Origin: a virus
Reading direction: 5' to 3' (one strand)
Length of the DNA: 29,424 nucleotides
Virus record (IMG/VR): IMGVR_UViG_3300050015_000182
Coordinates: 1-29,424 of that record
The notes under the pieces are model-generated. The model had not been told where the DNA came from and ran no database searches. It worked only from the letters and a program-made list of their open reading frames with translations. Below are positions 6,871-24,892 of this stretch, piece after piece; positions within the stretch are counted from its first letter, which is position 1; every line of letters begins with the position of its first letter. The position numbers were made by a program, and so were the translations under genes.

Positions 6871-6931
6871 TGTATGAAGAAAATATAAATGTTTTTAATT
6901 ATTTTATTGTTTAATTTAAAATTTGAAAATT

Positions 6932-7777
6932 ATGATTAGTGAAAAAGCACTGCGTACAGCCGCAAAAGAATTACAAGATGTAATGGGACTTGATCCTGCT
7001 ATTAACCTTAAAGCAAAAGTTGCCGACCTTCTGGCAGAAGTTACTAATGATGCTATTCCACAGATTCAGGAAGGTGATTCATTCTCTGAAGCAACTCAGG
7101 CAGTTATTGATGAGATTAAAGGTGGTGAACCGGAGGAAGAAGAAGCACCTGTTAAGAAAGTTGTTGCTAAGAAAAAACCTGCTCCTGTAGAAGAAGAAGT
7201 TGAAGAAGAACCAGAACCGGAAGAAGCAGTTGAAGAAGATGATGATTTAGCAACTCAAATTGCCGATGCTCAGAAAGTTTCTGACCTGGCTATTATCGTT
7301 AAAGCTAATAGTGAATTTAAATCATTAAAAGCCAAACTTGCTACTTTTACTAAAGCTTCAGTTCTCAAAGCTGCTATGCTTGAACTCCTTCCTGAACCGG
7401 AAGAAGAACCAGAACCTGAGCCTGTGAAGAAGATGGCTGGTAAGGTTGCAAATGCTGCAATCAAGAAACCTGCTGTTGAAGAGGAAGAGGAAGAAGAAAC
7501 GCCTACCAAGAAACCAGCTGGGAAAGGTAAAACGCCTTTTGTAAGTACCAAAGAAACTTTGGGGACAACCAGGGGTATTGAAGTATTCAAAGCTATGCAG
7601 TCAATCAAAGGTTCTCAGACTATTGATGCTATTGCTGCTATTGCCGATGCAAAATTTGTTAAAGCAGGAGGTGCTTCAAACCTTAAGCAGTCAAAGAATA
7701 TTGTTAAAGTCTTTACCCAGGCTGCTATTGAATGGGGGATTGTTGTTGATAAAGCTGATAAACTTTCCAATCCTTAA
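6932..7777 (+). CDS. Acidic, Pro/Lys-linker protein with two or three small helical domains; function unknown
   Basis: I take the ATG at 6932, because the TTG at 6923 falls inside a pre-start box (TTTGAAAATT) shared with other genes. The 281-residue product has an N-terminal helical module (about 1-65), a Glu/Pro/Lys-Lys-Pro linker (about 66-115), a short helical module (about 120-155), a second acidic/KKP linker, and a C-terminal module (about 205-281, TRGIEVFKAMQSIKG... to ...EWGIVVDK) with a winged-helix look. The linkers resemble those in the SSB tail at 22140. The gene has its own promoter-like box and terminator, and its codons are less AT-biased than its neighbours', which suggests strong expression. 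A DNA-binding or structural abundant protein is possible, but I do not recognise it. Confidence 0.75.
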   Translation: MISEKALRTAAKELQDVMGLDPAINLKAKVADLLAEVTNDAIPQIQEGDSFSEATQAVIDEIKGGEPEEEEAPVKKVVAKKKPAPVEEEVEEEPEPEEAVEEDDDLATQIADAQKVSDLAIIVKANSEFKSLKAKLATFTKASVLKAAMLELLPEPEEEPEPEPVKKMAGKVANAAIKKPAVEEEEEEETPTKKPAGKGKTPFVSTKETLGTTRGIEVFKAMQSIKGSQTIDAIAAIADAKFVKAGGASNLKQSKNIVKVFTQAAIEWGIVVDKADKLSNP

Positions 7778-7857: not shown

Positions 7858-8742
7858 ATGATAAAAAAATCTAAAGTTGGTTGGATAATCCCAACAAATA
7901 ATCCAAAGGCTTTATTTAATTACTTTCTAAAGAGCATAGATATTATCCTCTGTGATGAATTTAAACTACTCATAGCATTTCAACCACCCTGGACAAGTAA
8001 GTTAATAGATCAATTTTTATCTAAATGTAAAATGGATGTTGGTTATGATTTTATAGAACCTAAAAGACCAGTGTCTATGATGATGCTAAGAAATCATTGT
8101 GCTATGTTAGATCGGTCTGTTGATTATTATGTCTTAACTGATGATAACTTTTTATTTACAAATGGTACACCTAAATATCCTGCAGATTCATTAACTCGAT
8201 ATCAACAAGTTATTCAATACATGGATGAATTCCAAAATTGTGGATATGTTATGTGTGAAGGTTCTTTAGGAGGCAGTATCCAAAAACTAATAATTAAACC
8301 AACACTATCTGGATTAGTAAGCACTCAACGTGGAGTATTTTTTAGAAATATGAAAGGGAGAAATGTATGGCCATCAGATTGTTTAAATATTCCAGGAACT
8401 TGTGAAGAAACAATAGTGTGTTATGATATTATATCCAAAGGATTCTTTCCAGCCAAACAATTTAATAACCCTACTCAACATAAAGATAAAATTAAAGTAG
8501 AACCTAATAAAAATATAGGTACTATCCATTGTTTAGAGACACTTCAAAATGGTGCAATAAAGTATATAAGGGAAAAGTACAAAACGGATATTTGGACAAA
8601 TGACACAAGGTTCTTTCCAAAGGAATTAATAAAACAATATTTGAAATCTGGGGGAGATTCAGAATGGTTAGATTCTACTTCAGAGAAGTATGCTATGGAT
8701 TTTGAAAATGTTCGTAAATATAAATCAAATAATTTATTTTAA
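7858..8742 (+). CDS. GT-A glycosyltransferase-like protein
   Basis: The 294-residue product begins VGWIIPTNNP, a strand-turn typical of GT-A/family 2 nucleotide-sugar transferases. It places YYVLTDDNFLF (DDN at about 95-97) where such enzymes carry their metal-binding DxD. A GSLGGS segment and a conserved-looking CEE/H region (about 180-205) follow. Known phage GT-A enzymes decorate modified DNA bases or host surface sugars; the sequence does not say which. It opens the run of modification-like genes after a terminator and no clear promoter box precedes it, so read-through is likely. The protein ends in a charged, flexible tail closing -NNLF. No CCGG site occurs in the gene, unlike core replication genes. 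Confidence 0.55.
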   Translation: MIKKSKVGWIIPTNNPKALFNYFLKSIDIILCDEFKLLIAFQPPWTSKLIDQFLSKCKMDVGYDFIEPKRPVSMMMLRNHCAMLDRSVDYYVLTDDNFLFTNGTPKYPADSLTRYQQVIQYMDEFQNCGYVMCEGSLGGSIQKLIIKPTLSGLVSTQRGVFFRNMKGRNVWPSDCLNIPGTCEETIVCYDIISKGFFPAKQFNNPTQHKDKIKVEPNKNIGTIHCLETLQNGAIKYIREKYKTDIWTNDTRFFPKELIKQYLKSGGDSEWLDSTSEKYAMDFENVRKYKSNNLF

Positions 8743-8744
8743 TT

Positions 8745-9476
8745 ATGAAATATATAATAGGAAATCAAACAATACTTATTGAACAAGCTGAAACTTTAGA
8801 AGCAAAAGGAACCCCTCATCAAGTAGTATCTTGGAGGGATTGTGCAGAAACTTGTAGAAATTTAGATGTTATCTGTGACGTTATATCCGCTAAGGATAAT
8901 TTTTCATTAGATATTGTAGATGGGATAGCTCGTGCTGGTTTTTGGTCTGCCGTATTCCGAAATAAATGGGAGGATTGTACTCTTCATTTAAATGAAGGAG
9001 CTAAAGAATGTATTCCTGTATTGAAAAGGAATTTTCCTAATGATAAGATAACCAGTTTTGATATTCGGGAATGGGCACCAAAACAGTGTGATTTAGTAAT
9101 GCTTGATTTTGATTTCTTTACCTTAAAGAAATTTCATTCCGATAAATGGGAAGGGGTTATCACTTCTTGGGATGCTGCTAGTAGTAAATATCTTATACTT
9201 GCTGATGGTGCTTGTTTTGGTTTTAAATTTGGGAACATGAAGCATTATGGTATTTCTGATGAGAAAGACTATTACTATTTACTCAGAGATGAATTAAAAG
9301 GATATATGAACAAAAGACTTACCACTGTAAGTAAGTTTAATAATTCTTCCATAGTTCTATTTGAGAATGTCCGAAGGACTAATGATATAAAATTCTTACC
9401 TCCTTCTGATTTATTTTTAAGCAAAGGAAGTAAAGTATATGGTGGAACTGCTCCAGATTTAAACCCTTTATTCTAA
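8745..9476 (+). CDS. Putative Rossmann-fold methyltransferase-like protein
   Basis: This 243-residue protein shows a class I methyltransferase-like layout: a strand and Gly-containing turn (IVDGIARAGFWSAVF, about 56-71), an acidic end of the next strand (LHLNEGAK), then ITSFDIREW and the motif IV-like strand CDLVMLDFDFF (about 114-125). A later strand is YLILADGACFGFKF. The canonical GxGxG is not intact, so SAM binding is unproven. It is two bases after the glycosyltransferase-like gene and overlaps the next by TAATG, so the three are co-expressed. It ends DLNPLF, matching the KLKPLF end of the Dam-type protein at 13546. It could instead be a degenerate or non-catalytic Rossmann protein. Confidence 0.45.
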   Translation: MKYIIGNQTILIEQAETLEAKGTPHQVVSWRDCAETCRNLDVICDVISAKDNFSLDIVDGIARAGFWSAVFRNKWEDCTLHLNEGAKECIPVLKRNFPNDKITSFDIREWAPKQCDLVMLDFDFFTLKKFHSDKWEGVITSWDAASSKYLILADGACFGFKFGNMKHYGISDEKDYYYLLRDELKGYMNKRLTTVSKFNNSSIVLFENVRRTNDIKFLPPSDLFLSKGSKVYGGTAPDLNPLF

Positions 9477-10462
9477 TGTGGAAACAAGTACAAAAAGAAT
9501 TATTGGTTTTTGATAGTTCTTTAGATAGTTTGTGTGATCTTACCCTAGATACTTTGTATGGTTCTATGTGGGGATTAAATATGCGTTATATGACTTTGGA
9601 AGAAGCAATATTAAAAGATAAAAGAGGAATCCTCAATTACAGTTTGCAACGAATAAATAAACTTGTTGATGAACCTTTCTTTACTTTTAAACTTAGACCT
9701 GTACCAAGATGTAGAGTAGGGTATGGAACATATGGATGGAAATATGATAAGACTATTATTGAATTAGCTATTGAGCAAGCTTCCATAATAGATACCGCTG
9801 AAGGATATGGATATGGAAAGGTGGAAACAGAATTAGGAAAGATATTGAGTTGGGGTAATCCGGTTGAGGTTTATACTAAAGTAAGAAGGGATCATATGAG
9901 TTCATTAGCTATTCATAATTCAGTAACCAGAAGTGTAGATAAATTGAATAAGATTCCTCATGTACAATTACATTTCCCAAATGATAAATTTCCTTTAGCT
10001 ATAAAAGATTTAGCCTTATTAAGGCAACAAGGATTAATTAAAAGTATTGGTTTGAGCAACTGTTCTATCGACATGATAGAATCCGCTCAGCTCTTTCTAT
10101 CCGATTTTAGCGGAGATGTTGTAAACAGTGTTCAAATTGGTTTTAACATGCTAAATAATAGAGCTAGTAAAATACTAATACCTTATTGTCAGGAAAGAGG
10201 TATTTTGGTTCTAGCATATTCCCCTTTAGGACAGAAGTTCCAAACTTTAAAATTTAAGTTCCTTACTTACATAGCTAAAAAATATGGAAGTACAGAAGCT
10301 CAGGTTGCTTTAGCTTGGGTGTTATCATTCAAGGGAGTTATCCCAATTCCTAATACAAATAACATGGATCATCTAAAACAGAACTTTGAAGCTAATGATC
10401 TAATTCTTGAAAGGAACGATATTTTAGCATTAACAGAATTTTATAATGGAAAAAACGTATAA
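9476..10462 (+). CDS. Aldo/keto reductase with ~75-residue N-terminal extension
   Basis: Residues ~78-320 are a TIM-barrel aldo/keto reductase with the complete catalytic tetrad: Asp106 and Tyr111 in DTAEGYGYG, Lys135 in VYTKV and His166 in VQLHFPN. SIGLSNCS and LAYSPLGQ segments and an IPIPNTNN cofactor loop follow, so NAD(P)H-dependent carbonyl reduction is expected. The first ~75 residues are not part of the barrel (LDTLYGSMWGLNMRYMTLEE region) and are unrecognised. They could be a partner- or DNA-contact domain. Aldo/keto reductases are rare in phages. The gene overlaps its neighbours at both ends (TAATG before, 17 bases after), so it works with the rSAM and methyltransferase-like genes. 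Confidence 0.88.
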   Translation: MWKQVQKELLVFDSSLDSLCDLTLDTLYGSMWGLNMRYMTLEEAILKDKRGILNYSLQRINKLVDEPFFTFKLRPVPRCRVGYGTYGWKYDKTIIELAIEQASIIDTAEGYGYGKVETELGKILSWGNPVEVYTKVRRDHMSSLAIHNSVTRSVDKLNKIPHVQLHFPNDKFPLAIKDLALLRQQGLIKSIGLSNCSIDMIESAQLFLSDFSGDVVNSVQIGFNMLNNRASKILIPYCQERGILVLAYSPLGQKFQTLKFKFLTYIAKKYGSTEAQVALAWVLSFKGVIPIPNTNNMDHLKQNFEANDLILERNDILALTEFYNGKNV

Positions 10463-11504
10463 ATCTCCAATTGCAATGCGACAGGCTCATTTAACCTGCC
10501 CTTTAGCTTTAGCTTTAGAATCCTATTGGAATTGTGAAGCAGATTGTTTACATTGTATGGGAAGAAGGTTAAATCAGATATGGGGTACTGAGCAGAGAGT
10601 TACTGATCCGGAAGCTGTAAGGAAAACTCTAGTGAATGCTCTCAAGAATCCTCATCCTAAAACTATCATAGCTCAAGCTTTACATGCTAAGAAAGCTTTT
10701 TTTCTAGGAAGGAAAACTGATCCTTATCAACCGATAGAAAATAAATTGAATGTTACTCGTAGGTTATTGGAAATATTGTCTGAACTAAACTGGTCTGTCG
10801 TAGTGTGTTCAAGATTTCAGGATAATATGAAGAAGGATGTTGATTTAATTATTGATAATAAACGAAATATCTCACTTCTTACCGAGATTACCCCAGGTGG
10901 TGAGGCTGATCGGGAATTGTTTGAACGAAATCGTACAACTTCTATTGATGAGAGATTACTATTTACAAAGTACTTACAGGATAATAAAGTTAATGTAGGA
11001 GTAAGGGGTGAACCATTTATTCCAGGATATCATACTTTCAAACAATTTAGAGACATTTTGAAACGATTAAAAAGCTTCGGTATTAAATCTTATAATACTT
11101 ACAATCTGCATATAAATGAATACACTATCAAGAGGTTATATGCCATAGGGTTGGATATAGAAAAGATTTGGACTTTAAATCAAGATATATATTGGAGTGC
11201 TATACAAAAAAGATTATGCAGGATTGCAGATGAAGAAGGTATTATTTTAGGTTGTCCAGACTTTGTAAATGTTCCTACAGATAGAATGAATACTACCAAT
11301 ACCTGTTGTGGTATAAATGTTCATAACGCTTTAACATTTAATACTCATATTTGGCGAAATTTAATATTAAATGGGGATGAAGAAATAATGGATTATACAT
11401 GGGAAGATATAGGTACTGATGAAGACTGGAATCAAGCTAAATTGATTATATTAGGTAAACTATCTAAAGTTTATTATACATTTAAAGATGCTGGAATATT
11501 ATAA
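10446..11504 (+). CDS. Radical SAM protein 1, spore-photoproduct-lyase-like (SplB/COG1533-like)
   Basis: This 352-residue protein has CEADCLHC, which is Cx3Cx2C at residues 30, 34 and 37, the ligand set for the radical-SAM 4Fe-4S cluster. It is followed by GRKTDPYQPIE (about 88-98) and VTRRLLEIL, both typical of the spore-photoproduct-lyase-like branch. A later GCPDF...NTCCG region (about 270-290) could carry a second metal site. Members cleave SAM to a 5'-deoxyadenosyl radical; SPL itself repairs thymine dimers, but other members have other substrates. Its 17-base overlap with the reductase gene suggests coupled translation. A second, distinct member lies at 12131. Confidence 0.82.
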   Translation: MEKTYKSPIAMRQAHLTCPLALALESYWNCEADCLHCMGRRLNQIWGTEQRVTDPEAVRKTLVNALKNPHPKTIIAQALHAKKAFFLGRKTDPYQPIENKLNVTRRLLEILSELNWSVVVCSRFQDNMKKDVDLIIDNKRNISLLTEITPGGEADRELFERNRTTSIDERLLFTKYLQDNKVNVGVRGEPFIPGYHTFKQFRDILKRLKSFGIKSYNTYNLHINEYTIKRLYAIGLDIEKIWTLNQDIYWSAIQKRLCRIADEEGIILGCPDFVNVPTDRMNTTNTCCGINVHNALTFNTHIWRNLILNGDEEIMDYTWEDIGTDEDWNQAKLIILGKLSKVYYTFKDAGIL

Positions 11505-11522
11505 ATTTAAAACTTAGAAATT

Positions 11523-12134
11523 ATGGATGTAAAAACTACAAAAACTGAAAACAATTCCCATTATGTTTTTAAAGGAGGGAATAATGGAACTATTAAACCT
11601 GTATCTAATTCTAAAATAGATGCTGGAATTTGGTCTTATGAGAAACTATACAGTTCTCACAATCCGTTATTGGAATGTCTAGGAGGGATAGCTGATTTAG
11701 AAAGGATAAAAACCAAAGGGTTAATTATAAATGATGATTCTTCTTTATTTTATTGTTTATGTTTTCTCTATTTGTATATACAGGAAAAAAATAAGGAAGG
11801 TATTAATGCTGATAAAGTTTGGAAATTTATAATATCCTTTTCAGAAATGAAAGGCTTAGATAGGACTTCTGTAAATCATAGTTTAAATTCTTTAGTTGCT
11901 GTAGGTATTCTTGCCATGCAAAAGAAAGGATTACGGTCTATTAATTATTTTTTAGATAATGGGTTTATAAATAATGGAGGATTTTTATGGTTCTTTGTAG
12001 AAGAAAATAGAAGACAAGTTAAACCGGAATTTGATTTATTTGATAGTTTTCAAACTAAAGGGGTTCTGGAAGAAAGCAGACTTCGTATTGGTCTTATAAA
12101 TAGAGCAATTAAACAAACATTAAAATTGATATGA
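11523..12134 (+). CDS. Winged-helix-like protein of unknown role
   Basis: The 203-residue product starts after a clear A-rich pre-start box (TTAAAACTTAGAAATT). Its centre (about 75-150) reads like a winged helix: DRTSVNHSLNSLVAVGILAMQKKGLRSINYFLDNGF, with a recognition-helix-like segment and a wing. This resembles replication-initiator and regulator folds, including the general layout of the initiator at 4820. It sits between the two radical-SAM genes and overlaps the second by ATGA. It may bind DNA for, or regulate, the radical-SAM enzymes. No family assigned. Confidence 0.5.
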   Translation: MDVKTTKTENNSHYVFKGGNNGTIKPVSNSKIDAGIWSYEKLYSSHNPLLECLGGIADLERIKTKGLIINDDSSLFYCLCFLYLYIQEKNKEGINADKVWKFIISFSEMKGLDRTSVNHSLNSLVAVGILAMQKKGLRSINYFLDNGFINNGGFLWFFVEENRRQVKPEFDLFDSFQTKGVLEESRLRIGLINRAIKQTLKLI

Positions 12135-13546
12135 TAAAAGACATGACCTATTGGGAACTCAGGAAGGCAGTAAGCAAGATAGTTCCCCGAATGACACAAC
12201 TAGTTTCTTCCAGTCGTAAAGCGGAAATTGTGAGGGAAAAAGGACGCAAGAAAAACTACAGCCAATTTAATCTCCGGCATAGGGAATGGAGAAAACAGGA
12301 AAGGTTATTGAATACGGAAGAGATTAATTCCTTCCTAGAAATATCGGTCAGAGCTGCTGCTTGTCCGATGCCTTTTAATGTAGATGTATGGGATGGGTTA
12401 ATTTGTCCTTACAACTGTATCTACTGCTTCGCAAATAGCTTTCGAGCCTCTTTATACACCGCTTTCTTCGATAACAGTAAAACGATGGGTTTGCGACACT
12501 GCAATCCGGACTATTATGTTAAGGAGATGACTAAGATGGAAAAGCTCAGGGTTCTGCCTATGGAAGAGAAAAGAAAGCTTTCCGGTATTAACAAAGCTTT
12601 TGCCCTAGATATTCCGGTGCGTATGGGAATCCGGTTTGAGGACTTCTTGAGGAATGAAGGTAGGCACGGTGTAAGTCTAAGGTTGCTGGAATACTTTAAA
12701 GATATAGAGTATCCAGTGATGATTAATACCAAGTCTGATTTAGTAGCTCAGGATGCATACCTAAGAGCTTTAGCGGATAATCCGGCCAAGGCTGCCGTTC
12801 ATATTACTATGATTACTTCTAATGAAGAGATTATTAAGAAACTTGAGCCAGGTGCTCCTTCATACGCTAAAAGATTAGAAGCAATTCGGAAATTAAATGA
12901 TGCCGGAGTGAGAGCTGTTCCAAGGATTGAGCCTTTTCTGTACCTACTTACCGATGAACCGGATTATGTAGAGCAGTATATGCAAGATATTTGGGATGCT
13001 GGCGCCAGACATATTACATTCGATACTTATTCCTACACAGCCAATAACTCCGGACTTCGTCAGAACTTTATTAATGAAGGATATGACTATGATCGTATGT
13101 TCGAAGCAGGGTGCGATAGTCAACCTTTTGGTAGTCTGCTGTTAGGAAAGTTTATGCAACTATTCCGTGATCGTGGATTCTCTTGTTCTAGCTTCGATAT
13201 GGGGAATGCTCCTAGTAATGATCAGGCTGTATGTTGTGAAGTAACGGATTGGTTCAAAGGTGGTTGGAACTATGGTAGTACGGTTTACGCTGCTAGGTTC
13301 ATAGCTGACCGGAAAGGATTACCTACCCATTGGAAAGACTTTGAAGCTTTCGTTTACAAACGTGGAGGATTCTTAACTGAGGACTTGAGAAGGGAAGTGA
13401 AAGAACTTTGGAACCTTGGGGGCAATTTAGCTTATTCCCATAAGTGGGCTGCTGGTATGACTCCTACCGGAAGAGATGAGGATGGAATTATTTGGAGATT
13501 AAATAGTACAGATTATCGTGAAACCTTAATAAAAAGTGTTATATAA
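12131..13546 (+). CDS. Radical SAM protein 2, spore-photoproduct-lyase-like
   Basis: At 471 residues this is larger than protein 1. The radical-SAM cluster motif is CPYNCIYC (C92, C96, C99), preceded by a basic N-terminal ~70 residues that could bind nucleic acid. The strand YPVMINTKSDLVAQD, then HITMITSNEEIIKKLEPGAPS and RIEPFL match the SplB-like barrel. The C-terminal third has extra cysteines (SCSSF, AVCCEV). It is visibly richer in G+C and in CCGG (about 11 sites) than the genes on either side, a sign of a different history from the Dam gene that follows by TAATG. The reaction is unknown; a DNA lesion or a modified base is a reasonable but unproven substrate. Confidence 0.85.
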   Translation: MIKDMTYWELRKAVSKIVPRMTQLVSSSRKAEIVREKGRKKNYSQFNLRHREWRKQERLLNTEEINSFLEISVRAAACPMPFNVDVWDGLICPYNCIYCFANSFRASLYTAFFDNSKTMGLRHCNPDYYVKEMTKMEKLRVLPMEEKRKLSGINKAFALDIPVRMGIRFEDFLRNEGRHGVSLRLLEYFKDIEYPVMINTKSDLVAQDAYLRALADNPAKAAVHITMITSNEEIIKKLEPGAPSYAKRLEAIRKLNDAGVRAVPRIEPFLYLLTDEPDYVEQYMQDIWDAGARHITFDTYSYTANNSGLRQNFINEGYDYDRMFEAGCDSQPFGSLLLGKFMQLFRDRGFSCSSFDMGNAPSNDQAVCCEVTDWFKGGWNYGSTVYAARFIADRKGLPTHWKDFEAFVYKRGGFLTEDLRREVKELWNLGGNLAYSHKWAAGMTPTGRDEDGIIWRLNSTDYRETLIKSVI

Positions 13547-14304
13547 TGTTATTAAGAAGACAGGGAAATAAAGAAAGTATAGCAGATAAAATAATCTCGA
13601 ACTTTCCAAAGCATAATACCTATATAGAACCTTTCTTTGGAGCTGGAGGATTATTTTTTAACAAACCTTTAGTCCAATATAACATAGTAAATGATTTAGA
13701 TTTGGACGTATATAATTTATATATGGTACTTACAAAAGATTTTGAAAATTTAAAATCTGCTTTTTTAGAAATGCCTTTTCATGAAGAATTACATAGGTAT
13801 TGGAAAATAAATAAAGAAACAGATCCTGTTAAAAAAGCGGTACGTTTTTTATTTCTAAGTAATTATGTACTGTACGGAACACCCACAGGAAGTTTACATA
13901 GTTCTGCAGCACGTAATCAAAAACAATTATGTTTAGATGATTTTGTTATTGTAAGAAAAAAGTTACAAAATGTGAAATTCTTTAATCGTGATTTCAAAGA
14001 GTTTTTAAAAATCATAGATTTAGATTTAAAAAGTAGCTTTATTTATGCAGACCCCCCCTACTTAGCTACAGGAGGTAACTATTCAGATCATTTTAAAGAG
14101 CAGGATAGTTTAGATTTATTTGACAGTTTAGAAAGTAAAGGGTCTAAATGGGCTATGAGTGAATTCAATAATCCTTTCATTATAAATCAAGCTAAAAAAC
14201 GAAAATTAAATGTAATTGAAATTGGGGAAAGAAGAAACATAAATAACAGAAGAACTGAAATATTAGTAACTAATTATGATAACAAATTAAAACCATTATT
14301 CTAA
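13546..14304 (+). CDS. DNA adenine N6-methyltransferase, Dam/D12 class
   Basis: The protein has PFFGAGG (about 29-35), the SAM-binding FxGxG motif, and DPPY at 169-172, the catalytic motif of amino-methyltransferases, in the order of the D12/Dam class. At 252 residues it is of typical length. It would methylate adenine in a short DNA site, probably to evade host restriction or mark phage DNA. The sequence shows no cognate nuclease, so it is an orphan methylase. The gene is AT-rich and lacks CCGG, unlike the radical-SAM gene before it, suggesting later acquisition. It ends KLKPLF, like the DLNPLF end at 8745. Confidence 0.92.
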   Translation: MLLRRQGNKESIADKIISNFPKHNTYIEPFFGAGGLFFNKPLVQYNIVNDLDLDVYNLYMVLTKDFENLKSAFLEMPFHEELHRYWKINKETDPVKKAVRFLFLSNYVLYGTPTGSLHSSAARNQKQLCLDDFVIVRKKLQNVKFFNRDFKEFLKIIDLDLKSSFIYADPPYLATGGNYSDHFKEQDSLDLFDSLESKGSKWAMSEFNNPFIINQAKKRKLNVIEIGERRNINNRRTEILVTNYDNKLKPLF

Positions 14305-14633
14305 TGAAAATAGTATATATAGCACACCCAGTAAGTGGAGATATTAGAAAGAATCTAATAAAAATAAAACAGATTGTTAGAGATATTAATATTCACATGC
14401 CTGATGTTCTACCCTTTGTACATTATTGGCTTGATTGCCATGCTTTAAATGATAATATCCCTGAAGAACGGGAAAGAGGAATAAAAAATGATATTGCTTT
14501 ATTAAAAGCTGGGTTCATTGATGAGATGTGGTTATTCGGAAATCATGTAAGTAAAGGAATGCAGCATGAAATAGAATTAGCCAATAAACTTAAAATTCCT
14601 GTAATTTCAAAATCCGAATCTATTAATCTATAA
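14304..14633 (+). CDS. DUF4406-like (nucleoside 2-deoxyribosyltransferase-like) protein
   Basis: The 109-residue protein starts IVYIAHPVSGD, then PFVHYWLDCHAL, EERERGIKND, and DEMWLFGNHVSKGMQHEIELANKLKIPV. This follows the DUF4406/nucleoside 2-deoxyribosyltransferase-like pattern, which has the fold that cleaves N-glycosidic bonds of deoxynucleosides. It is linked to the Dam gene by TAATG and is equally AT-rich, so the two probably arrived together. It may act on nucleotide pools used for base modification. The catalytic Glu and the substrate contacts cannot be confirmed by eye. Confidence 0.75.
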   Translation: MKIVYIAHPVSGDIRKNLIKIKQIVRDINIHMPDVLPFVHYWLDCHALNDNIPEERERGIKNDIALLKAGFIDEMWLFGNHVSKGMQHEIELANKLKIPVISKSESINL

Positions 14634-14645
14634 ATCTATATAAAT

Positions 14646-15416
14646 ATGAAAATTACAAGTCTAGTTGAAGAAATCTTCGCACAAGCCGTAGCTCTGGATC
14701 AGAGTGGCGGATTAAAGAATACTATCTATGCTATTGGGCATGAGATATTTATTCTTAATTATGATCATACGGTATTGCTCCGTTTCCGATTAAGGAACTC
14801 AGAAGGAACTTTTGAGCATCCTATTGCTTTCAAAGCCAACGATTATGATAGTAATACGTTTGAGGAGAAGGATGGTAAGGTGATCTTCTATTCCGGTAAT
14901 GAGGAATATCAAAGGAAGAAGATTTGTGGAACTTCTGATCTTACTCCGGAAGAGGTAAAGGAACTATTTGCTAAGTACATAGCTGATACGGAAGATCGTT
15001 CCATGGTTACTCTTTCCAAAGATGTTCTGTCCTTACTCGATGACGAATTAAGTCATGTAGAGTTTTCCGGTAATGCTGGTGAGTCTATTAAGATGATCCA
15101 ACGCAATATCTATTCCGGAGGTATCATTGAAGTAGAGAAAGTTGAAGGAGGTATGTTCAAAGAAGAGCTAGAAAATGACTTTGGTCCAGTGGCTATCAAG
15201 ACCGGAGATTTTCGTGCTCTATTTACTTTCCAGGATGCTTTGAAATTCTCTTTCCCTAGTCGGGGTAAAGAAGATTTTATCTTAGTCAAAGGACTGGATG
15301 ATAACAAAAGGTCTATCACGGGCATAGTAGCTTGTTGTCTGTACGATGAAGTTATAGCACTTCAGGAAGTAGTAAAAGGAGGAGTTAAACCAAAACCAAT
15401 TAGGAGGAACAAATAA
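14646..15416 (+). CDS. Conserved-looking hypothetical protein next to clamp genes
   Basis: The 256-residue product alternates short beta strands and acidic turns, with an N-terminal helix (SLVEEIFAQAVALD) and a basic tail (KPKPIRRNK). I recognise no domain. Codon choice is G+C-richer and CCGG-rich (about 5 sites), like the clamp and radical-SAM protein 2, so it looks like a resident core gene. The stop shares bases with the next ATG (TAATG). A divergent clamp-like or regulatory beta protein is conceivable, but not supported by a motif. Confidence 0.6.
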   Translation: MKITSLVEEIFAQAVALDQSGGLKNTIYAIGHEIFILNYDHTVLLRFRLRNSEGTFEHPIAFKANDYDSNTFEEKDGKVIFYSGNEEYQRKKICGTSDLTPEEVKELFAKYIADTEDRSMVTLSKDVLSLLDDELSHVEFSGNAGESIKMIQRNIYSGGIIEVEKVEGGMFKEELENDFGPVAIKTGDFRALFTFQDALKFSFPSRGKEDFILVKGLDDNKRSITGIVACCLYDEVIALQEVVKGGVKPKPIRRNK

Positions 15417-15577
15417 TGGGAGGGAAGTCAAGAAAATCAGGTGGAGTATCGCTAAAGCTTATACAAGCTCTGAAAGCATCCAAAGGTGAGAAGTCTAAAT
15501 GCATTAATGTACCCAAGAATGAAAAAGAAAATAGAGGTAAGTCTTTATTTGACAAGAGCTCAGGAACTGAAGATTGA
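15416..15577 (+). CDS. Possible small basic protein (53 aa), overlapping
   Basis: An ATG at 15416 shares bases with the upstream stop (TAATG) and has a strong AGGAGG eight bases upstream (15402-15407), rare in this window. The product is basic and Ser/Lys/Gly-rich (MGGKSRKSGG start) without a motif. It overlaps the next gene by about 59 bases in another frame. It fills what would otherwise be a ~100-base gap. It may instead be a translation-coupling leader. Confidence 0.4.
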   Translation: MGGKSRKSGGVSLKLIQALKASKGEKSKCINVPKNEKENRGKSLFDKSSGTED

Positions 15578-16304
15578 TCCTAACTTCTTTCTCAGTGAAC
15601 CTTATTTAAGGTTTTCCAAGGTACAATGTTACTCTAACAAGGGATGGGTCTGGATAGAAGCGGATGGGTGGACTTTATTCCCACCTCTTCCTACAGGGGA
15701 AATCATAGCAAATTATCCTTACCAATGTAGAAAGATTTGGTCGGACTTTGAAAACCGTAAACCCAATTACTTTCATAGTGAGTTCTTGGATTGGGAATAC
15801 CTGCTCGATTCTAAAGCGTTTAACGACATGACGGGAGGAAAGTGGGAGACTTATAGGAAGAATGCGAGAAAGTGGCCGAAAGCCAATCCAAATTGGTTGT
15901 ATACAGGGTATAATGATCCTTCGGAAGTATCTAGATTACTAGGAAGTTGGTTGGAAGTTAAACAGAAAGATGTTCAGGATGGGAAACTTATCATAGAGTT
16001 TCTTTTGAATAATAAGGAAACTGAGGGAATTTCCAGAAAGTATCTTTACAGTAACGGAAATTTGGTAGCTGTAAACGTATGGGACGAAAACTGGAAATAT
16101 ATTAATTTTCGTTTTTGTATAATAAGACCGGAAGAGCCTTATTTAGATGAGTTCGCCAGACTTCTATTCTATACTGATCCTATTATTCAGATAAAAGGTA
16201 AACTTATTAATGATGGAGGTTCTTTAGGTAGTATGGGGTTGGAGAGGTTTAAAGATAAGCTTCAGCCTGTAAGAAAAAGAAAAGTTCATTCGTGGTGTAT
16301 TTAA
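15519..16304 (+). CDS. GNAT / DUF2156-like acyltransferase-like protein
   Basis: I choose ATG 15519 (MKKKIEVSLYLT); ATG 15507 and GTG 15486 are in frame but lie deeper in the overlap. Residues ~90-261 resemble GNAT proteins of the phosphatidylglycerol-lysyltransferase C-terminal/DUF2156 type: KAFNDMTGGKWETYRKNARKW, a strand LVAVNVWDENWKYINFRF, and the end INDGGSLGSMGLERFKDKLQP, the usual NxG-S...GL..fK.kl.P signature. Such enzymes move acyl or aminoacyl groups. In phages, acyltransferase-like proteins occur in base-hypermodification loci, so the neighbourhood (methylase, DUF4406, radical SAM) is suggestive, not proof. Confidence 0.6.
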   Translation: MKKKIEVSLYLTRAQELKIDPNFFLSEPYLRFSKVQCYSNKGWVWIEADGWTLFPPLPTGEIIANYPYQCRKIWSDFENRKPNYFHSEFLDWEYLLDSKAFNDMTGGKWETYRKNARKWPKANPNWLYTGYNDPSEVSRLLGSWLEVKQKDVQDGKLIIEFLLNNKETEGISRKYLYSNGNLVAVNVWDENWKYINFRFCIIRPEEPYLDEFARLLFYTDPIIQIKGKLINDGGSLGSMGLERFKDKLQPVRKRKVHSWCI

Positions 16305-16315
16305 ACTTAAATAAA

Positions 16316-17341
16316 ATGAAAATCAACAAACAAGAATTACAAACTGCTTTAGGCTTGGTGAAGCCAGGTCTTGCTACAAAGGAAGTTATTGAACAATCTA
16401 CTTCTTTTGCTTTTATGGGTGGACGAGTAGTTACCTATAATGATGAAATAAGTCTTTCTCATCCCGTTCCAGGTTTGGAACTTGAGGGAGCTATCGAATC
16501 CGATAAACTCTATCAACTTCTTACCAAGATTAAGCAGGAAGAGATTGATATTGAAGTAGAAGGGAATGAGGTTATAATTACTGCCGGAAAAGCAAAAGCA
16601 GGATTAACCCTACAAACGGAAATCAGTTTACCTTTGGATGAAGCTCTGAACGAAAAGGGTAAATGGAAACCTATTCCGGATGGGTTCTTGAAGTTTGTAG
16701 CTTTATGTATTCCCTCTTGTGCTCGTCAAGCTACTAAACCGATGCTAGGTGCGGTACACGTTAAGGAAGAGGGAGTGATTGAAGCCAGTGATGGTTACCG
16801 GATTACTCGTTGTAGCTTACCGGAAGAGGGAGCAATGCCCGTAGCATCCTTTTTACTTCCGGCAAGTTCTGCTCGTCAGATGCTTTCCCTACAACCTACC
16901 AAGATAGCAGAAGGGAAAGGATGGATTCACTTTAAAACCGCTGAAGGAACAGTTTTGTCTTGCCGGATATTAGAAGGGGATGAATACCCTGATACTACTC
17001 CTCATATGGTTCTTAAAGGAGCTAAACCTATTATCTTCCCAGGTTCTATTATAGAGATTATGAACCGTGCTTCCGTATTCTCCAAAGATGAATCGGGAGT
17101 GGATTCTATTGAGATACGGGTTGAGCCTAAGAGAATGCATATCAAAGCTCAAACCGAATTAGGATGGTTCAAGGAAGAAGTAAATACCAAGTATGATGGA
17201 GAACCTCTTGAGTTCAAAATCAATCCGGCATTACTTCAAGGGATTCTATCGGAAACGCAAACCGGAGAACTTACCAAGAACAAACTTGCTTTCCGTTTAG
17301 AGGGTTGGGAATATATGACTGTTCTTCAAGCTATACAATAA
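16316..17341 (+). CDS. DNA polymerase sliding clamp (beta-clamp-like)
   Basis: I start at ATG 16316, after an A-rich leader; the GTG at 16292 would overlap the previous gene. The 341-residue product has the repeated beta-alpha pattern of DnaN-type clamps: SDKLYQLLTKI and VIITAGKAKAGLTLQ in domain 1, MLGAVHVKEEGVIEASDGYRITRC in domain 2 (the DGYR/ASDG segment is diagnostic), and ILEGDEYPDTTP joining domains 2 and 3. Family clamps form a ring on DNA and tether polymerases and other enzymes. It overlaps the polymerase-complex gene that follows by TAATG. Possible clients with -LF tails occur in several neighbouring genes. Confidence 0.85.
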   Translation: MKINKQELQTALGLVKPGLATKEVIEQSTSFAFMGGRVVTYNDEISLSHPVPGLELEGAIESDKLYQLLTKIKQEEIDIEVEGNEVIITAGKAKAGLTLQTEISLPLDEALNEKGKWKPIPDGFLKFVALCIPSCARQATKPMLGAVHVKEEGVIEASDGYRITRCSLPEEGAMPVASFLLPASSARQMLSLQPTKIAEGKGWIHFKTAEGTVLSCRILEGDEYPDTTPHMVLKGAKPIIFPGSIIEIMNRASVFSKDESGVDSIEIRVEPKRMHIKAQTELGWFKEEVNTKYDGEPLEFKINPALLQGILSETQTGELTKNKLAFRLEGWEYMTVLQAIQ

Positions 17342-18582
17342 TGGAAGGATTCTTCACTAAGAAAGAAACTGAATCAAAAGCTCGTCCTGACGGGAAGAAA
17401 CTTACCTGTGTTGTCTGTGGATTATACAGGAAAGTTGAATCCCCCAAGATACCTCCATACGGTAACTTTAAGAAAGGTATCATGGTGGTAGGAAATTCTC
17501 CTACTACCCAGGATGATAGAAGAGGAAGTCATTGGCAAGGTAGTGCTGGAAGATTGTTAAAATCTACTTTGAGAGATTTAGGAATAGATTTGTTTGAGGA
17601 TTGCATTAATATTACTGCTTGTCATTGCCGTACCATGGACAAGAATGAAGAAGATCGGGAACCTACTAATTTTGAAATAGAATGTTGTAGAAAATCTACT
17701 CTGGGTTACATAACTCAATATGCTCCTAAAGTAGTTATTCTAATGGGAGATTCTGCAGTATTCAGTGTTATAGGTAATCAGTGGAAGAAAGACTTGGGAA
17801 CTATACATAAATGGCGGGGATGGTGTATTCCTGACTTAGACCTAAATACTTGGATATGTCCTACATTTCATCCTGATTATATTGAATTTATTAGGACTAA
17901 GAAAGTACAAAATCAAGGAGCAGAAGAAACTATTTGGAAGCAGGATTTACAACAAGCTATTGAAAGAGCCTCAGAACCTTTATATGTTTATAAAGAACCT
18001 ACCATAGAAGTGATTGAGGATTTATCTGTATTAAATACTATTACTTCAGATATAGCTTTTGACTATGAAACCACCGGATTAAAACCTCATGCGGAAGGTC
18101 ATAGGATAATTTGCTGTTCTGTAGCTACCAGTAAAGATCATGCTTATGTATTTATGATGCCTAAAAGTAGGAAAGGTCGTCAACCTTTCGTTGATTTATT
18201 AGCTAATCCTCAAATTGGTAAGATTGCTCAAAACATGAAGTTTGAAGAAAGCTGGAGTGAGGTACGGTTACGTCAACCTGTGGTTAATTGGAAATGGGAC
18301 ACTATGCAGTTTACCCATGTAATGGATAATCGTCAAAGTATTACCGGATTAAAATTTCAAGCTTATGTGCAATTTGGTGTGGTGGATTATGATAGTGAAA
18401 TAGCACCTTGGCTTAAATCTAAGAAAGAAGAAAGCTGTAATGATATAAATCAAATAGAAACTCTATTAATGCAAGCTGGGGGTATTAAAAAATTACTTCA
18501 TTATTGTGCACTTGATTCTATTTATGAGTATCGTTTAGCAATGAGACAAATGAGTATGTTGGACAATATATTACCTTTTTGA
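17341..18582 (+). CDS. Uracil-DNA-glycosylase-like domain fused to 3'-5' exonuclease (N-terminal half of a split PolA)
   Basis: I start at ATG 17341 (TAATG with the clamp). Residues ~20-190 resemble family 4 UDG: Cys23/Cys26, Cys94 or Cys96 and Cys115 or Cys116 as 4Fe-4S ligands, GSHWQGSAGRLL, NITACHCR, and a late TFHPDY motif. The catalytic motif GEAPG is VGNSPTTQ here, so the usual Glu is Asn52 and glycosylase activity is doubtful. Residues ~225-405 are a DnaQ-type proofreading exonuclease: FDYETTG (Asp241, Glu243), NMKFEE (Exo II) and HYCALD (Exo III). The polymerase domain is a separate gene at 18955. In phage SPO1 related domains form one chain. The tail MLDNILPF could bind the clamp. 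Confidence 0.85.
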   Translation: MEGFFTKKETESKARPDGKKLTCVVCGLYRKVESPKIPPYGNFKKGIMVVGNSPTTQDDRRGSHWQGSAGRLLKSTLRDLGIDLFEDCINITACHCRTMDKNEEDREPTNFEIECCRKSTLGYITQYAPKVVILMGDSAVFSVIGNQWKKDLGTIHKWRGWCIPDLDLNTWICPTFHPDYIEFIRTKKVQNQGAEETIWKQDLQQAIERASEPLYVYKEPTIEVIEDLSVLNTITSDIAFDYETTGLKPHAEGHRIICCSVATSKDHAYVFMMPKSRKGRQPFVDLLANPQIGKIAQNMKFEESWSEVRLRQPVVNWKWDTMQFTHVMDNRQSITGLKFQAYVQFGVVDYDSEIAPWLKSKKEESCNDINQIETLLMQAGGIKKLLHYCALDSIYEYRLAMRQMSMLDNILPF

Positions 18583-18583
18583 T

Positions 18584-18958
18584 ATGAAACAAATATCTTT
18601 CAAAGCTTTTATAAAAGAGCAAGGGACAGATCGTACATGGCAAGAAGAATTTTCTGATCTAGTGGTAGATGATATGACTCCTATGCAATGTGCTAAGTTT
18701 CTTATAAGAAGGTTCAATGATACTTTACGTCCAGGAGAAAAACCTAGAGAAGTGGTGAGAGTGAGAAGTTTAGAAGTAGGTGTACTAAAAGAGCATAACT
18801 GGGGAAAAATAAGTTTTAGATCAGACGATGAAGGTTATTACCCTTATCAATGTGCTGCTTGTGGAGCTACTGGAAAACGTCATGGGTCTGTTAATTTTAT
18901 TACTCCTGATAGAAAGCATACTATTTATTGTAAATCAATAATGAGAAGAACAACATGA
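18584..18958 (+). CDS. Small protein with C-terminal zinc ribbon, inserted between polymerase halves
   Basis: Residues ~1-85 form an alpha/beta domain (FKAFIKEQGTDRTWQEEFSDLVVDD, then MTPMQCAKFLIRRFN). Residues ~85-124 are a zinc-ribbon-like module: YQCAACGATGKRHG, then IYCKSIMR. This matches the small zinc modules at 2343 and 3630. It starts one base after the exonuclease gene and overlaps the polymerase start by ATGA, so it is translated with both. It may bridge the two polymerase subunits, which is inference from position only. Confidence 0.6.
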   Translation: MKQISFKAFIKEQGTDRTWQEEFSDLVVDDMTPMQCAKFLIRRFNDTLRPGEKPREVVRVRSLEVGVLKEHNWGKISFRSDDEGYYPYQCAACGATGKRHGSVNFITPDRKHTIYCKSIMRRTT

Positions 18959-20343
18959 ATATAAACCCTAATACACAAGAAGCATATCAGTTAATGCATG
19001 ATGGAGCTTTAGCTATGTCTAATGCTGAGCAAGCCGGATTTCATATTGATATGGAATATGTAGAAAGAAAAAAAGCTTTCCTAGTAAAGAAGATGCAACG
19101 TACTGAAGATCAATTTAAAGCTACTGACTTCTTTAAGCATTGGCAACATACTTCTAAGAATAAAGTAAATATTCATTCCCCTCAACAACTTTCTAATTTT
19201 CTTTATAAGATTAAGAAAATTGATGTAGGGAATCTTACAGCTTCAGGGCAAGGTAGCACTAATGAAGAAACATTGAAGCAACTTAACATACCGGAACTTA
19301 ACTTGTTATTAGAAACTACCCGATTCAAGAAACCTTGGGATGTATTGAATGGATTTGCCAATGAACAAATAGATGGGGTGGTTCATCCTTTCTATAATCT
19401 TCATTTAGTGCGTAGTTTTCGCAGTAGTTCTGATAGTCCTAATTTTCAGAATATACCAAAGAGGGATGAAGAAGTAATGCAACTTTGTAGAAGAGCAATA
19501 TTTCCTAGACCTGGTCATCAGTTCTTAGAAATTGACTACAGTGGAATAGAGGTAAGGATTAATGCCTGTATTAATAAAGACCCAAAATTGGTTAAATATG
19601 TTTCTGATCCTAAATCAGATATGCATAGAGATGTAGCTATTCAATTATTTTTATTAGATAAGCTGGACAAATCTTTACCAGAGCATAGTAATTTACGCTA
19701 CATAGCTAAGAATGGTTTTGTATTCCCTGAATTTTATGGAAGTTATTGGAAGAATGTAGCTGATCAAATAGCTTGTAATCATGGTAAATTAGGCTATGGG
19801 AAATGGTTACCCAATCAAGGTATTGCTATGCCTGAAGGAACTTTATCAGATCATTTCCTTTCTAAAGGGATTAAAACACTAACCATGTTTGAAGAACATG
19901 TTAAAAAGATTGAAGCAGATTTTTGGGGAAAAAGATTTAAAGTTTATTCTGAATGGAAAAATCAAAATTGGGATGATTATAAAAAGAACGGATATGTTGA
20001 TTTACCTACAGGATTCCGGTGTAGTGGAGTAATGGATAAGAAACAAGTTAATAACTATCCTGGTCAAGGTTCTGCTTTCCATTGTTTACTTTGGAGTTTT
20101 ATTCAATTAGATAAAACCCGAATATCTCAAGGTTGGGATGCTAAATTAGTAGGACAGATTCATGATTCTATAATTGTGGATGTAGCTCCTAGAGAATTGG
20201 AACATGTGGCTAAGGTTGCTAGACGTATAACCACTCAAGCACTTCCTCAAGCTTGGGAATGGATCAATGTACCATTAGATGTGGAAATGGAGCTTTGTCC
20301 GGTTGATGGTAGCTGGGCAGATAAGACAAAATATATTAATTAA
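18955..20343 (+). CDS. polA: Family A DNA polymerase (polymerase domain only)
   Basis: This 462-residue protein carries the PolA palm and fingers: SSSDSPNFQNIP (about 157-168), motif A FLEIDYSGIEVR (catalytic Asp194), a motif B region with Arg248, Lys252 and FYGSYW, and motif C GQIHDSIIVD (Asp404). Departures are Gly for Gln in motif A, Ser for Glu after HD in motif C, and an insertion of ~50-60 residues after motif B. No exonuclease domain is present; it is encoded separately at 17341, so the holoenzyme is probably assembled from two chains. It works with the clamp and clamp loader encoded on either side. Confidence 0.9.
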   Translation: MNINPNTQEAYQLMHDGALAMSNAEQAGFHIDMEYVERKKAFLVKKMQRTEDQFKATDFFKHWQHTSKNKVNIHSPQQLSNFLYKIKKIDVGNLTASGQGSTNEETLKQLNIPELNLLLETTRFKKPWDVLNGFANEQIDGVVHPFYNLHLVRSFRSSSDSPNFQNIPKRDEEVMQLCRRAIFPRPGHQFLEIDYSGIEVRINACINKDPKLVKYVSDPKSDMHRDVAIQLFLLDKLDKSLPEHSNLRYIAKNGFVFPEFYGSYWKNVADQIACNHGKLGYGKWLPNQGIAMPEGTLSDHFLSKGIKTLTMFEEHVKKIEADFWGKRFKVYSEWKNQNWDDYKKNGYVDLPTGFRCSGVMDKKQVNNYPGQGSAFHCLLWSFIQLDKTRISQGWDAKLVGQIHDSIIVDVAPRELEHVAKVARRITTQALPQAWEWINVPLDVEMELCPVDGSWADKTKYIN

Positions 20344-24707: not shown

Positions 24708-24892
24708 AAAAATCAGTTATTATTGTTTATGTACCTGCAAAAAAAACACAGGAAGAAAAAGATTTCTTGGATGAGAATTTGAAAAAAATAAAAGCATCTA
24801 ATTTACATGATGGGTTTAATATGTTATATATTGAAGACCCAGCAAGAACAAAAGCAGAAGTTGAAGTATTTTTTAATCCTTTCCAAGAATGA
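24704..24892 (+). CDS. Hypothetical small protein
   Basis: This 62-residue protein is joined by ATGA to both RecA and the B12 radical-SAM gene. It has a strand (SVIIVYVP), a charged helix and another strand, and looks like a small alpha/beta fold. No motif recognised. Tight coupling implies co-expression with RecA. Confidence 0.6.
   Translation: MKKSVIIVYVPAKKTQEEKDFLDENLKKIKASNLHDGFNMLYIEDPARTKAEVEVFFNPFQE

What the first reader, a model, noticed from the sequence alone, without database searches (positions are those of the whole stretch)
7858..16304. Candidate undescribed DNA modification or lesion-chemistry island with two SplB-like radical SAM enzymes
Eleven contiguous genes include a GT-A-like enzyme, a methyltransferase-like protein, an intact-tetrad aldo/keto reductase, two distinct SplB-like radical-SAM proteins flanking a winged-helix-like protein, a Dam-type methylase, a DUF4406 protein and a GNAT-like protein. 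They are in one coding direction, mostly with overlapping junctions, and placed directly upstream of the sliding clamp. Individually several of these families appear in phage base-hypermodification or DNA repair. The combination of an aldo/keto reductase with paired SplB-like proteins is one I do not know from a described pathway. Substrate and product are unknown.
Basis: partly seen in the sequence, partly recalled or inferred. Interest (0 to 1): 0.72.

Follow-up and report, generated by a model that had tools for sequence, protein, structure and literature searches.

The report
Phage radical-SAM-pair DNA modification cassette
Inside a row of phage genes there is a five-gene core (two iron-sulphur radical enzymes, a clamp-shaped protein, a tiny conserved peptide and an aminoacyl-transferase-like enzyme) that is gained or lost as one block and replaces, at the same spot in related phages, the genes that make 7-deazaguanine DNA, so it very probably makes a different, undescribed DNA base.

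Summary
The genes are real and the 'DNA modification' reading holds up, but the working unit differs from the eleven listed genes. The core is RSA (10446-11504), RSB (12131-13546), p9 (14646-15416), a small ORF 'sp' (15416-15577; MGGKSRKSGGVS...) and p10 (15486-16304). RSA and RSB are paralogous COG1533 radical-SAM enzymes. The model of p9 matches sliding clamps; the model of p10 matches MprF/FemX-type aminoacyl transferases. Among 48 clamp-sharing relatives, 8 carry the core, 39 carry none of it, one is contig-truncated. sp occurs in 47/47 core-bearing loci and 0/39 others. In 23 of the 39, the same interval holds FolE/QueD/QueE/QueC/DpdA-type genes for 7-deazaguanine DNA; FolE+TGT never co-occurs with the core (0/43 versus 23/39), and the clamp tree needs at least 20 swaps. 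Methyltransferase-like p2 and the aldo/keto reductase form an optional slot, elsewhere replaced by a PLP enzyme; Mom, TAGT and FAD-oxidoreductase genes also occur nearby. p1, p5, Dam and DUF7768 are not core. No cultured phage in the collection has the core. Substrate and product remain unknown; nucleoside mass spectrometry would decide.

The parts
10446..11504 (+). RSA: COG1533-type radical-SAM enzyme, core; subtype travels with the slot enzymes
   Evidence: phrog_13321 3.7e-15; rSAM_PA0069 8e-16 below cut-off; C18, C30/C34/C37, C287, C288 invariant in 48 relatives; identity excess among p2+p3 loci
12131..13546 (+). RSB: second COG1533-type radical-SAM enzyme, core; uninterrupted here, intein-bearing in several relatives
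   Evidence: PF04055 31.7 bits versus 29.5; rSAM_Rv2578c 4e-21 below cut-off; C78, C92/C96/C99, C368, C369 invariant in 36 relatives; most conserved protein of the region
14646..15416 (+). p9: protein with sliding-clamp fold, core
   Evidence: AlphaFold pLDDT 86; Foldseek PDB PCNA E 2.5e-8, 487 hits under 1e-3; phage clamps TMt 0.66; not detectable by profile against the neighbouring clamp
15416..15577 (+). sp: small peptide MGGKSRKSGGVS..., core
   Evidence: 47 of 47 core loci, 0 of 39 core-less relatives; no Pfam family
15486..16304 (+). p10: MprF/FemX-type double-GNAT transferase fold, core (ATG near 15519 is the likelier start by alignment)
   Evidence: AlphaFold pLDDT 93; Foldseek 2hqy 7e-13, MprF, Sbb17, FemX; LPG_synthase_C in 25 of 38 relatives, best 6e-6
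9476..10462 (+). p3: aldo/keto reductase with intact tetrad and a roughly 75-residue N-terminal extension; optional slot enzyme
   Evidence: PF00248 3.5e-34; tetrad invariant in 11 relatives; present in a minority of core loci
8745..9476 (+). p2: methyltransferase-like protein; optional slot enzyme, pairs with p3
   Evidence: family of 10 aligned; a relative matches Methyltransf_25 at 9e-5
7858..8742 (+). p1: unassigned protein, only in the window and L002; glycosyltransferase identity unproven
11523..12134 (+). p5: unassigned, rarely found in relatives
13546..14304 (+). p7: D12-type (Dam-like) DNA adenine methylase, accessory, not conserved at this place
   Evidence: PF02086 2.6e-21; scattered in relatives
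14304..14633 (+). p8: DUF7768 protein (phrog_355, nucleoside 2-deoxyribosyltransferase-like), accessory
   Evidence: PF24963 1.6e-20; phrog_355 5e-14
6923..7777 (+). K6923: conserved protein with acidic linkers, left border of the swap site; present with and without the core
16292..17341 (+). replicative sliding clamp, right border of the swap site
   Evidence: phrog_947 2e-39; anchor of the relatives scan

Best explanation
This is a mobile phage DNA base-modification cassette of an undescribed type. SHOWN: a five-gene core (RSA, RSB, p9, sp, p10) behaves as one unit and alternates at one replisome locus with 7-deazaguanine DNA cassettes; RSA travels with the slot enzymes (methyltransferase-like p2 plus aldo/keto reductase p3 here). 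INFERRED: RSA and RSB, each with a radical-SAM cluster and three further invariant cysteines that could hold a second cluster, use SAM-derived radicals to functionalise a base already in DNA. The clamp-fold protein p9, perhaps with sp, ties the enzymes to the replisome next to the true clamp. p10 transfers an aminoacyl group onto the base-linked handle or onto sp. The slot enzymes then elaborate the adduct: here methylation and carbonyl reduction, elsewhere PLP chemistry or FAD oxidation. The product shields phage DNA from host nucleases, as 7-deazaguanines do. The confidence given is for a DNA-modification cassette; the ordered chemistry alone deserves about 0.35.
For: All-or-none presence: 8 loci with all four large core genes, 39 with none, 1 cut by its contig end, among 48 clamp-anchored relatives. 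sp in 47/47 core loci and 0/39 others. The same interval holds FolE, QueD, QueE, QueC and TGT/DpdA-like genes in 23 of the 39; FolE+TGT in 0/43 core loci versus 23/39 (Fisher p 2.8e-10) and none in ten long core contigs. At least 20 state changes on the clamp tree; sister pairs L054/L287 and L056/L262 match at 67-74% DNA identity on both flanks of different cassettes. Mom, TAGT, FAD oxidoreductase, amidoligase and DNA methylases near the core in relatives. Clamp fold of p9 points to DNA. Invariant catalytic cysteines in RSA and RSB.
Against: No nucleoside data exist. p9 is a clamp only by fold (TM about 0.5-0.66), undetectable by profile, and its helices are not basic, so it may not encircle DNA. 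Loci within the phage group share ancestry, so the Fisher test overstates independence. The core could have another role and merely share an insertion site. 16 of the 39 core-less relatives have neither cassette, so the site is not reserved for base modification. Most contigs are fragments.
Confidence: 0.77

Rival explanations
1. Peptide-scaffolded pathway: sp is a precursor or amino-acid carrier (RiPP-like or amino-carrier-like). p10 charges it from aminoacyl-tRNA, RSA/RSB and the slot enzymes remodel the residue, and the product is a small molecule or modified peptide rather than a DNA base.
For: sp has a near-invariant N-terminus and a variable tail, like a leader/core peptide, and stays directly upstream of p10 even when other genes are inserted between p9 and p10; radical-SAM enzymes and MprF/FemX-type folds suit such chemistry; PLP and methyltransferase-like slot enzymes are common there (general knowledge).
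Against: The tail has no constant modifiable residue; no transporter or protease was seen in the core; the clamp fold of p9 and exchange with 7-deazaguanine DNA genes point to DNA. It may be a step of the DNA pathway rather than an alternative.
Confidence: 0.12
2. DNA-lesion repair: RSA/RSB repair photo- or other lesions in phage DNA, as spore photoproduct lyase does, with p9 as a repair clamp (9-1-1-like).
For: COG1533 proteins are often annotated as DNA repair photolyases (general knowledge); weak SP-lyase hit for RSB (E 0.05-0.09); p9 model also matches a 9-1-1 clamp subunit.
Against: Curated SP-lyase models are not met; repair does not explain exchange with 7-deazaguanine genes, the swappable PLP/AKR slot, Mom and TAGT neighbours or the aminoacyl-transferase fold.
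Confidence: 0.06
3. RNA modification: the core modifies tRNA or phage RNA.
For: Several COG1533-like and queuosine enzymes act on RNA; an RtcB gene sits inside one locus (L008); an aminoacyl-tRNA-type fold is present.
Against: Clamp fold in the core, position inside the replisome block, and exchange with cassettes that hold TGT/DpdA-like DNA enzymes. No tRNA gene in the window.
Confidence: 0.04
4. Plain synteny: the genes sit together only because the phages are related; there is no functional unit.
For: The replisome order is conserved too.
Against: 39 of 48 clamp relatives lack all four large core genes at once, and gain or loss recurs across the tree.
Confidence: 0.01

Closest known systems
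Phage 7-deazaguanine DNA modification (FolE/QueD/QueE/QueC/DpdA; Hutinet 2019, PMC6884629)
   Same: Occupies the same helicase-to-clamp interval in sister phages, is gained and lost as a block, has optional decorating enzymes (glycosyltransferase-, radical-SAM- and methyltransferase-like).
   Different: No FolE+TGT in any core locus; no shared enzyme except that both use radical-SAM folds.
Thymidine hypermodification through 5-hydroxymethyl-dU (thymidylate-synthase homologue, DNA kinase, amino-acid transferase, PLP, radical-SAM and acetyltransferase steps; from my own knowledge of Lee et al. 2021, not held)
   Same: Combines radical-SAM, PLP, FAD oxidoreductase and amino-acid-transfer-type enzymes.
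   Different: Thymidylate-synthase homologue in only 3 of 30 core contigs and none in the window; other enzyme families; the 5hmdU kinase was not searched for.
Carboxymethylcytosine system CmoA/CmoX/CmoY (PMC12783734)
   Same: Handle-then-decorate logic with an amino acid attached to a base in phage DNA.
   Different: Uses carboxy-SAM and a C5-methyltransferase homologue, and an ATP-dependent ligase; neither the radical-SAM pair nor the clamp-fold protein is part of it (no mention of radical SAM in the paper).
Phage Mu Mom and TET-associated glycosyltransferase (TAGT) modifiers
   Same: Genes of these families lie near the core in 1 and 3 relatives.
   Different: Absent from the window and most core loci; p1 is not a detectable TAGT.
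COG1533 radical-SAM proteins (PA0069, Rv2578c, mobile pair B; spore photoproduct lyase)
   Same: CxxxCxxC and family-level similarity; some cellular members share the extra cysteines. 'Mobile pair' (TIGR04470) is a precedent for paired genes.
   Different: Below every curated cut-off; SP-lyase model not met.
MprF / FemX / Sbb17 aminoacyl-tRNA-dependent transferases
   Same: Fold of p10.
   Different: About 7-19% identity; acceptor and donor unknown.

Membership tests
Spore photoproduct lyase (SplB) | Match to the curated models TIGR04070 / PF20903 | tested here: not met
   RSB 12.5 bits versus 400 and 12.1 versus 27; RSA no match
COG1533-type radical-SAM protein | CxxxCxxC cluster motif | tested here: met
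   Invariant in 48 RSA and 36 RSB proteins
COG1533-type radical-SAM protein | Curated equivalog cut-off of a named subfamily (PA0069, Rv2578c, mobile pair B) | tested here: not met
   Best 57.9 and 75.4 bits versus 360 and 430
7-deazaguanine DNA cassette | FolE, QueD/E/C and DpdA present | tested here: not met
   FolE+TGT in 0 of 43 core loci and none in ten long contigs
5-hydroxymethyl-dU-type thymidine hypermodification | Thymidylate-synthase/hydroxymethylase homologue | tested here: not met
   PF00303 in 3 of 30 core contigs; none seen in the window, which is a fragment
5-hydroxymethyl-dU-type thymidine hypermodification | 5hmdU DNA kinase | not tested
   No search was made for this family
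TET/JBP-based modification | Tet_JBP oxygenase (PF12851) | tested here: inconclusive
   0 of 50, but no control genome rang either
Phage base-modification cassette (general kind) | Altered nucleoside in virion DNA | not testable with these tools
   Needs mass spectrometry
Phage base-modification cassette (general kind) | Modular block at the swap site of known base-modification genes, with optional decorators | tested here: met
Sliding clamp (p9) | Clamp fold | tested here: met
Sliding clamp (p9) | Basic inner helices | tested here: not met
   Mean helix charges -1.6 to +0.2 across the family
Sliding clamp (p9) | Detectable profile similarity to the phage's own clamp | tested here: not met
   HH probability 2.4%
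Aminoacyl-tRNA-dependent transferase (p10) | MprF/FemX double-GNAT fold | tested here: met
   Foldseek E 7e-13 to 3e-6
Aminoacyl-tRNA-dependent transferase (p10) | Use of aminoacyl-tRNA | not testable with these tools
   Needs biochemistry
Aldo/keto reductase (p3) | Pfam cut-off and D/Y/K/H tetrad | tested here: met
   118.7 bits versus 24; tetrad invariant
TET-associated glycosyltransferase (p1) | Profile similarity to PF20691 proteins | tested here: not met
   No hit in the window; HH probability 0.3%. TAGTs do occur in three relatives

The most novel reading that the evidence does not exclude
A DNA hypermodification route in which a pair of radical-SAM enzymes functionalises a canonical base directly in replicating DNA, held at the fork by a dedicated clamp-fold protein and a 50-residue peptide, with an aminoacyl-tRNA-dependent transferase loading an amino acid onto the base (or onto the peptide as carrier). 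The chemistry of the final base is set by a swappable RSA-plus-slot sub-cassette.
Probability: 0.35. Interest if true: 0.92.

Novelty: new variant of a known kind. Interest (0 to 1): 0.76.

Why it matters
It would add a pathway without a described counterpart (in the papers searchable here) to the known phage base-modification systems, using a COG1533 radical-SAM pair, a clamp-fold partner, an MprF/FemX-fold transferase and a tiny invariant peptide. The site where it swaps with 7-deazaguanine genes gives a simple rule for finding more unknown modification cassettes: read what lies between the replicative helicase and the clamp in this phage group. Three previously unassigned families (p9, p10, sp) get a testable role.

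Tried and rejected
Sequence-profile searches of the PDB with RSA, RSB and p9 gave nothing useful; p10 gave only 2hqy. A profile comparison of p9 with the neighbouring clamp failed, so the clamp claim rests on fold alone. p1 was tested as a TAGT and rejected. PADLOC defence models gave nothing, so a defence-system reading was dropped. Thymidylate synthase and Tet_JBP were tested as sources of a hydroxymethyl handle and not supported. Two family searches failed because more than 50 handles were given and were repeated. Literature searches found no paper on such a phage cassette; two key papers, Lee 2021 and Iyer 2013, are not in the library.
Full report
WHAT IS THERE. The window is a whole 29.4-kb virus record, a fragment. 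Between a protein with acidic linkers (6923-7777, 'K6923') and the replicative clamp (16292-17341) lie the genes of the finding, all on the plus strand, most with overlapping junctions. Family searches named the aldo/keto reductase p3, the D12 methylase p7, DUF7768 p8, and radical-SAM proteins at 10446 (RSA) and 12131 (RSB). They left 7858 (p1), 8745 (p2), 11523 (p5), 14646 (p9) and 15486 (p10) without a secure family.

THE RADICAL-SAM PAIR. RSA and RSB are distant paralogues (HH E 5.6e-18). Both are COG1533-type: the best curated models are PA0069 for RSA (8e-16) and Rv2578c for RSB (4e-21), both far below the equivalog cut-offs, and spore photoproduct lyase is a marginal hit only. Alignment of 48 RSA and 36 RSB proteins shows CxxxCxxC plus three further invariant cysteines in each: C18/C287/C288 and C78/C368/C369. 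The same extra pattern occurs in some cellular COG1533 proteins but not in the generic ones. That these hold a second cluster is an inference. RSB is the most conserved protein of the region: median identity to the window 57.5%, against 31.4% for the clamp, 41.5% for polC and 46.8% for the clamp loader. Four contigs (L073, L179, L195, L207) have a second RSB-like protein instead of RSA, so the pair itself is kept.

CONSERVED CORE. Scans anchored on RSA (57 loci), RSB (25), p10 (22) and p9 (25) return the same arrangement: RSA, slot, RSB, p9, sp, p10, clamp. Ten long contigs all carry RSA/RSB, p9 and p10. In bacterial genomes true RSB occurs only on three short MAG contigs with p9 and p10 beside it, presumably phage contigs. 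RSA, p9 and p10 match none of 50,697 phage records, and RSB matches one faecal fragment at 25%. p9: the AlphaFold model (pLDDT 86) matches PCNA and phage sliding clamps; its helices are not basic. p10: the model (pLDDT 93) matches 2hqy, MprF, Sbb17 and FemX. sp: a small ORF directly upstream of p10 starting (M)GGKSRK(S/T)GG(V/I)S, found in 47 of 47 core loci and 0 of 39 core-less relatives; its tail is variable and often ends in an LF/LL-type motif. A clamp-binding role for that motif is a guess.

THE TEST THAT MATTERS. A scan anchored on the clamp brought in relatives irrespective of the cassette. Of 48 with at least 6 kb upstream, 8 have all of RSA, RSB, p9 and p10, 39 have none and one is cut by its contig end. 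In the 39, the interval is empty (for example L296, L276, L274), holds DNA methylases or other genes, or (23 cases) carries FolE (PF01227), a TGT/DpdA-like protein and QueE, with QueC in 13 and QueD in many: the known 7-deazaguanine DNA set (PMC6884629). FolE plus TGT occurs in 0 of 43 core-bearing loci against 23 of 39 core-less ones (Fisher p 2.8e-10; the loci are related, so the p-value overstates independence) and nowhere in ten long core-bearing contigs. On a clamp tree of 77 rows the three states need at least 20 changes; for the core, starred branches alone force 8. Sister pairs L054/L287 and L056/L262 align at 67-74% DNA identity on both sides of different cassettes. The locus is therefore a swap site for DNA base-modification cassettes, and the present core is one of its occupants.

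SLOT ENZYMES. Between RSA and RSB, or just before RSA, lies a variable slot: p2+p3 (window, L002, L008, L010, L011, L015, L016, L018), a PALP-fold PLP enzyme (26 sequences, PF00291), an FAD oxidoreductase with a reductase (L036, L052, L055, L070), or none of these. Nearby are Mom (L016), TAGT (L035, L036, L018), an amidoligase (L019) and DNA methylases. RSA proteins of p2+p3 loci are 13 identity points closer than RSB, p9 and p10 predict (permutation p 0.001), while RSB, p9 and p10 show no such effect. RSA and the slot enzymes thus move as a sub-cassette. p1, p5, p7 and p8 are rare or window-specific.

HOW IT MAY WORK. Shown: the unit, its site, its alternation with 7-deazaguanine genes, and the predicted folds. 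Inferred from these and from general knowledge of the families: radical functionalisation of a base in DNA by RSA/RSB; tethering through p9 and perhaps sp; aminoacyl transfer by p10; finishing by slot enzymes; protection from host nucleases. Which base and which group cannot be told from sequence. The strongest rival is a peptide-carrier scheme built on sp, which may also be a step of the same pathway.

NOVELTY. The kind (phage base hypermodification) is known; the core has no described counterpart in the papers that could be searched. The library lacks several key papers, so an earlier description cannot be excluded.

Noticed in passing
L002 8685-11122; L005 2966-5643; L011, L024, L030, L050, L051, L052 (RSB gene): Inteins interrupt RSB at two sites inside its CxxxCxxC motif: before the first Cys (L005, L011, L024, L051, L052) or before the third (L002, L011, L030, L050); L011 has both. 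In L002 and L005 the intein halves lie in different frames with a homing-endonuclease-like ORF between, like split inteins of fractured genes. The window's RSB is uninterrupted.
   Followed up: partly
window 4820, 23646, 26542, 28102: Unrelated window proteins (DnaD-like, RecA, RuvC, SbcD-like) begin with nearly the same peptide M(E/Q)RT(K/R), encoded by nearly the same DNA (ATGGAAAGAAC); similar starts occur in relatives (L002, L004, L224). Unexplained.
   Followed up: partly
window 17305-20343: The DNA polymerase is split into two ORFs, the first with a uracil-DNA-glycosylase-like region and exonuclease, with a 124-residue ORF between; the small ORF is missing or replaced in relatives, and polC is interrupted near residue 157 in L032 and L077.
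   Followed up: no
window 24889-26166: A further radical-SAM-like protein (B12-binding type by eye), outside the cassette.
   Followed up: no
L124 7642-11248 (Sphingomonas sp. QA11 chromosome): A cellular COG1533 protein with the same extra cysteines sits beside a PALP-type PLP enzyme (E 6e-13 to the phage PLP profile), a protein that looks DUF4406-like and a membrane protein: a chromosomal echo of the RSA-PLP pair.
   Followed up: partly
window, 31 gene starts: Only 3 of 31 tested starts have a Shine-Dalgarno-like sequence; such scarcity is typical of Bacteroidota and their phages, so the host may be one (inference).
   Followed up: no
L237, L238, L245, L249 and other core-less relatives: The 7-deazaguanine cassettes carry undescribed decorators: a glycosyltransferase-like protein (N10), further radical-SAM proteins (N14, N19, N23), methyltransferase-like proteins (N18, N22) and others.
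   Followed up: partly
L242 about 4793; L008 12465-13643; L054 11754-13268: A PLP-family gene occurs without the core (L242); an RtcB ligase lies between RSB and p9 (L008); a third COG1533 protein lies after p10 (L054).
   Followed up: no
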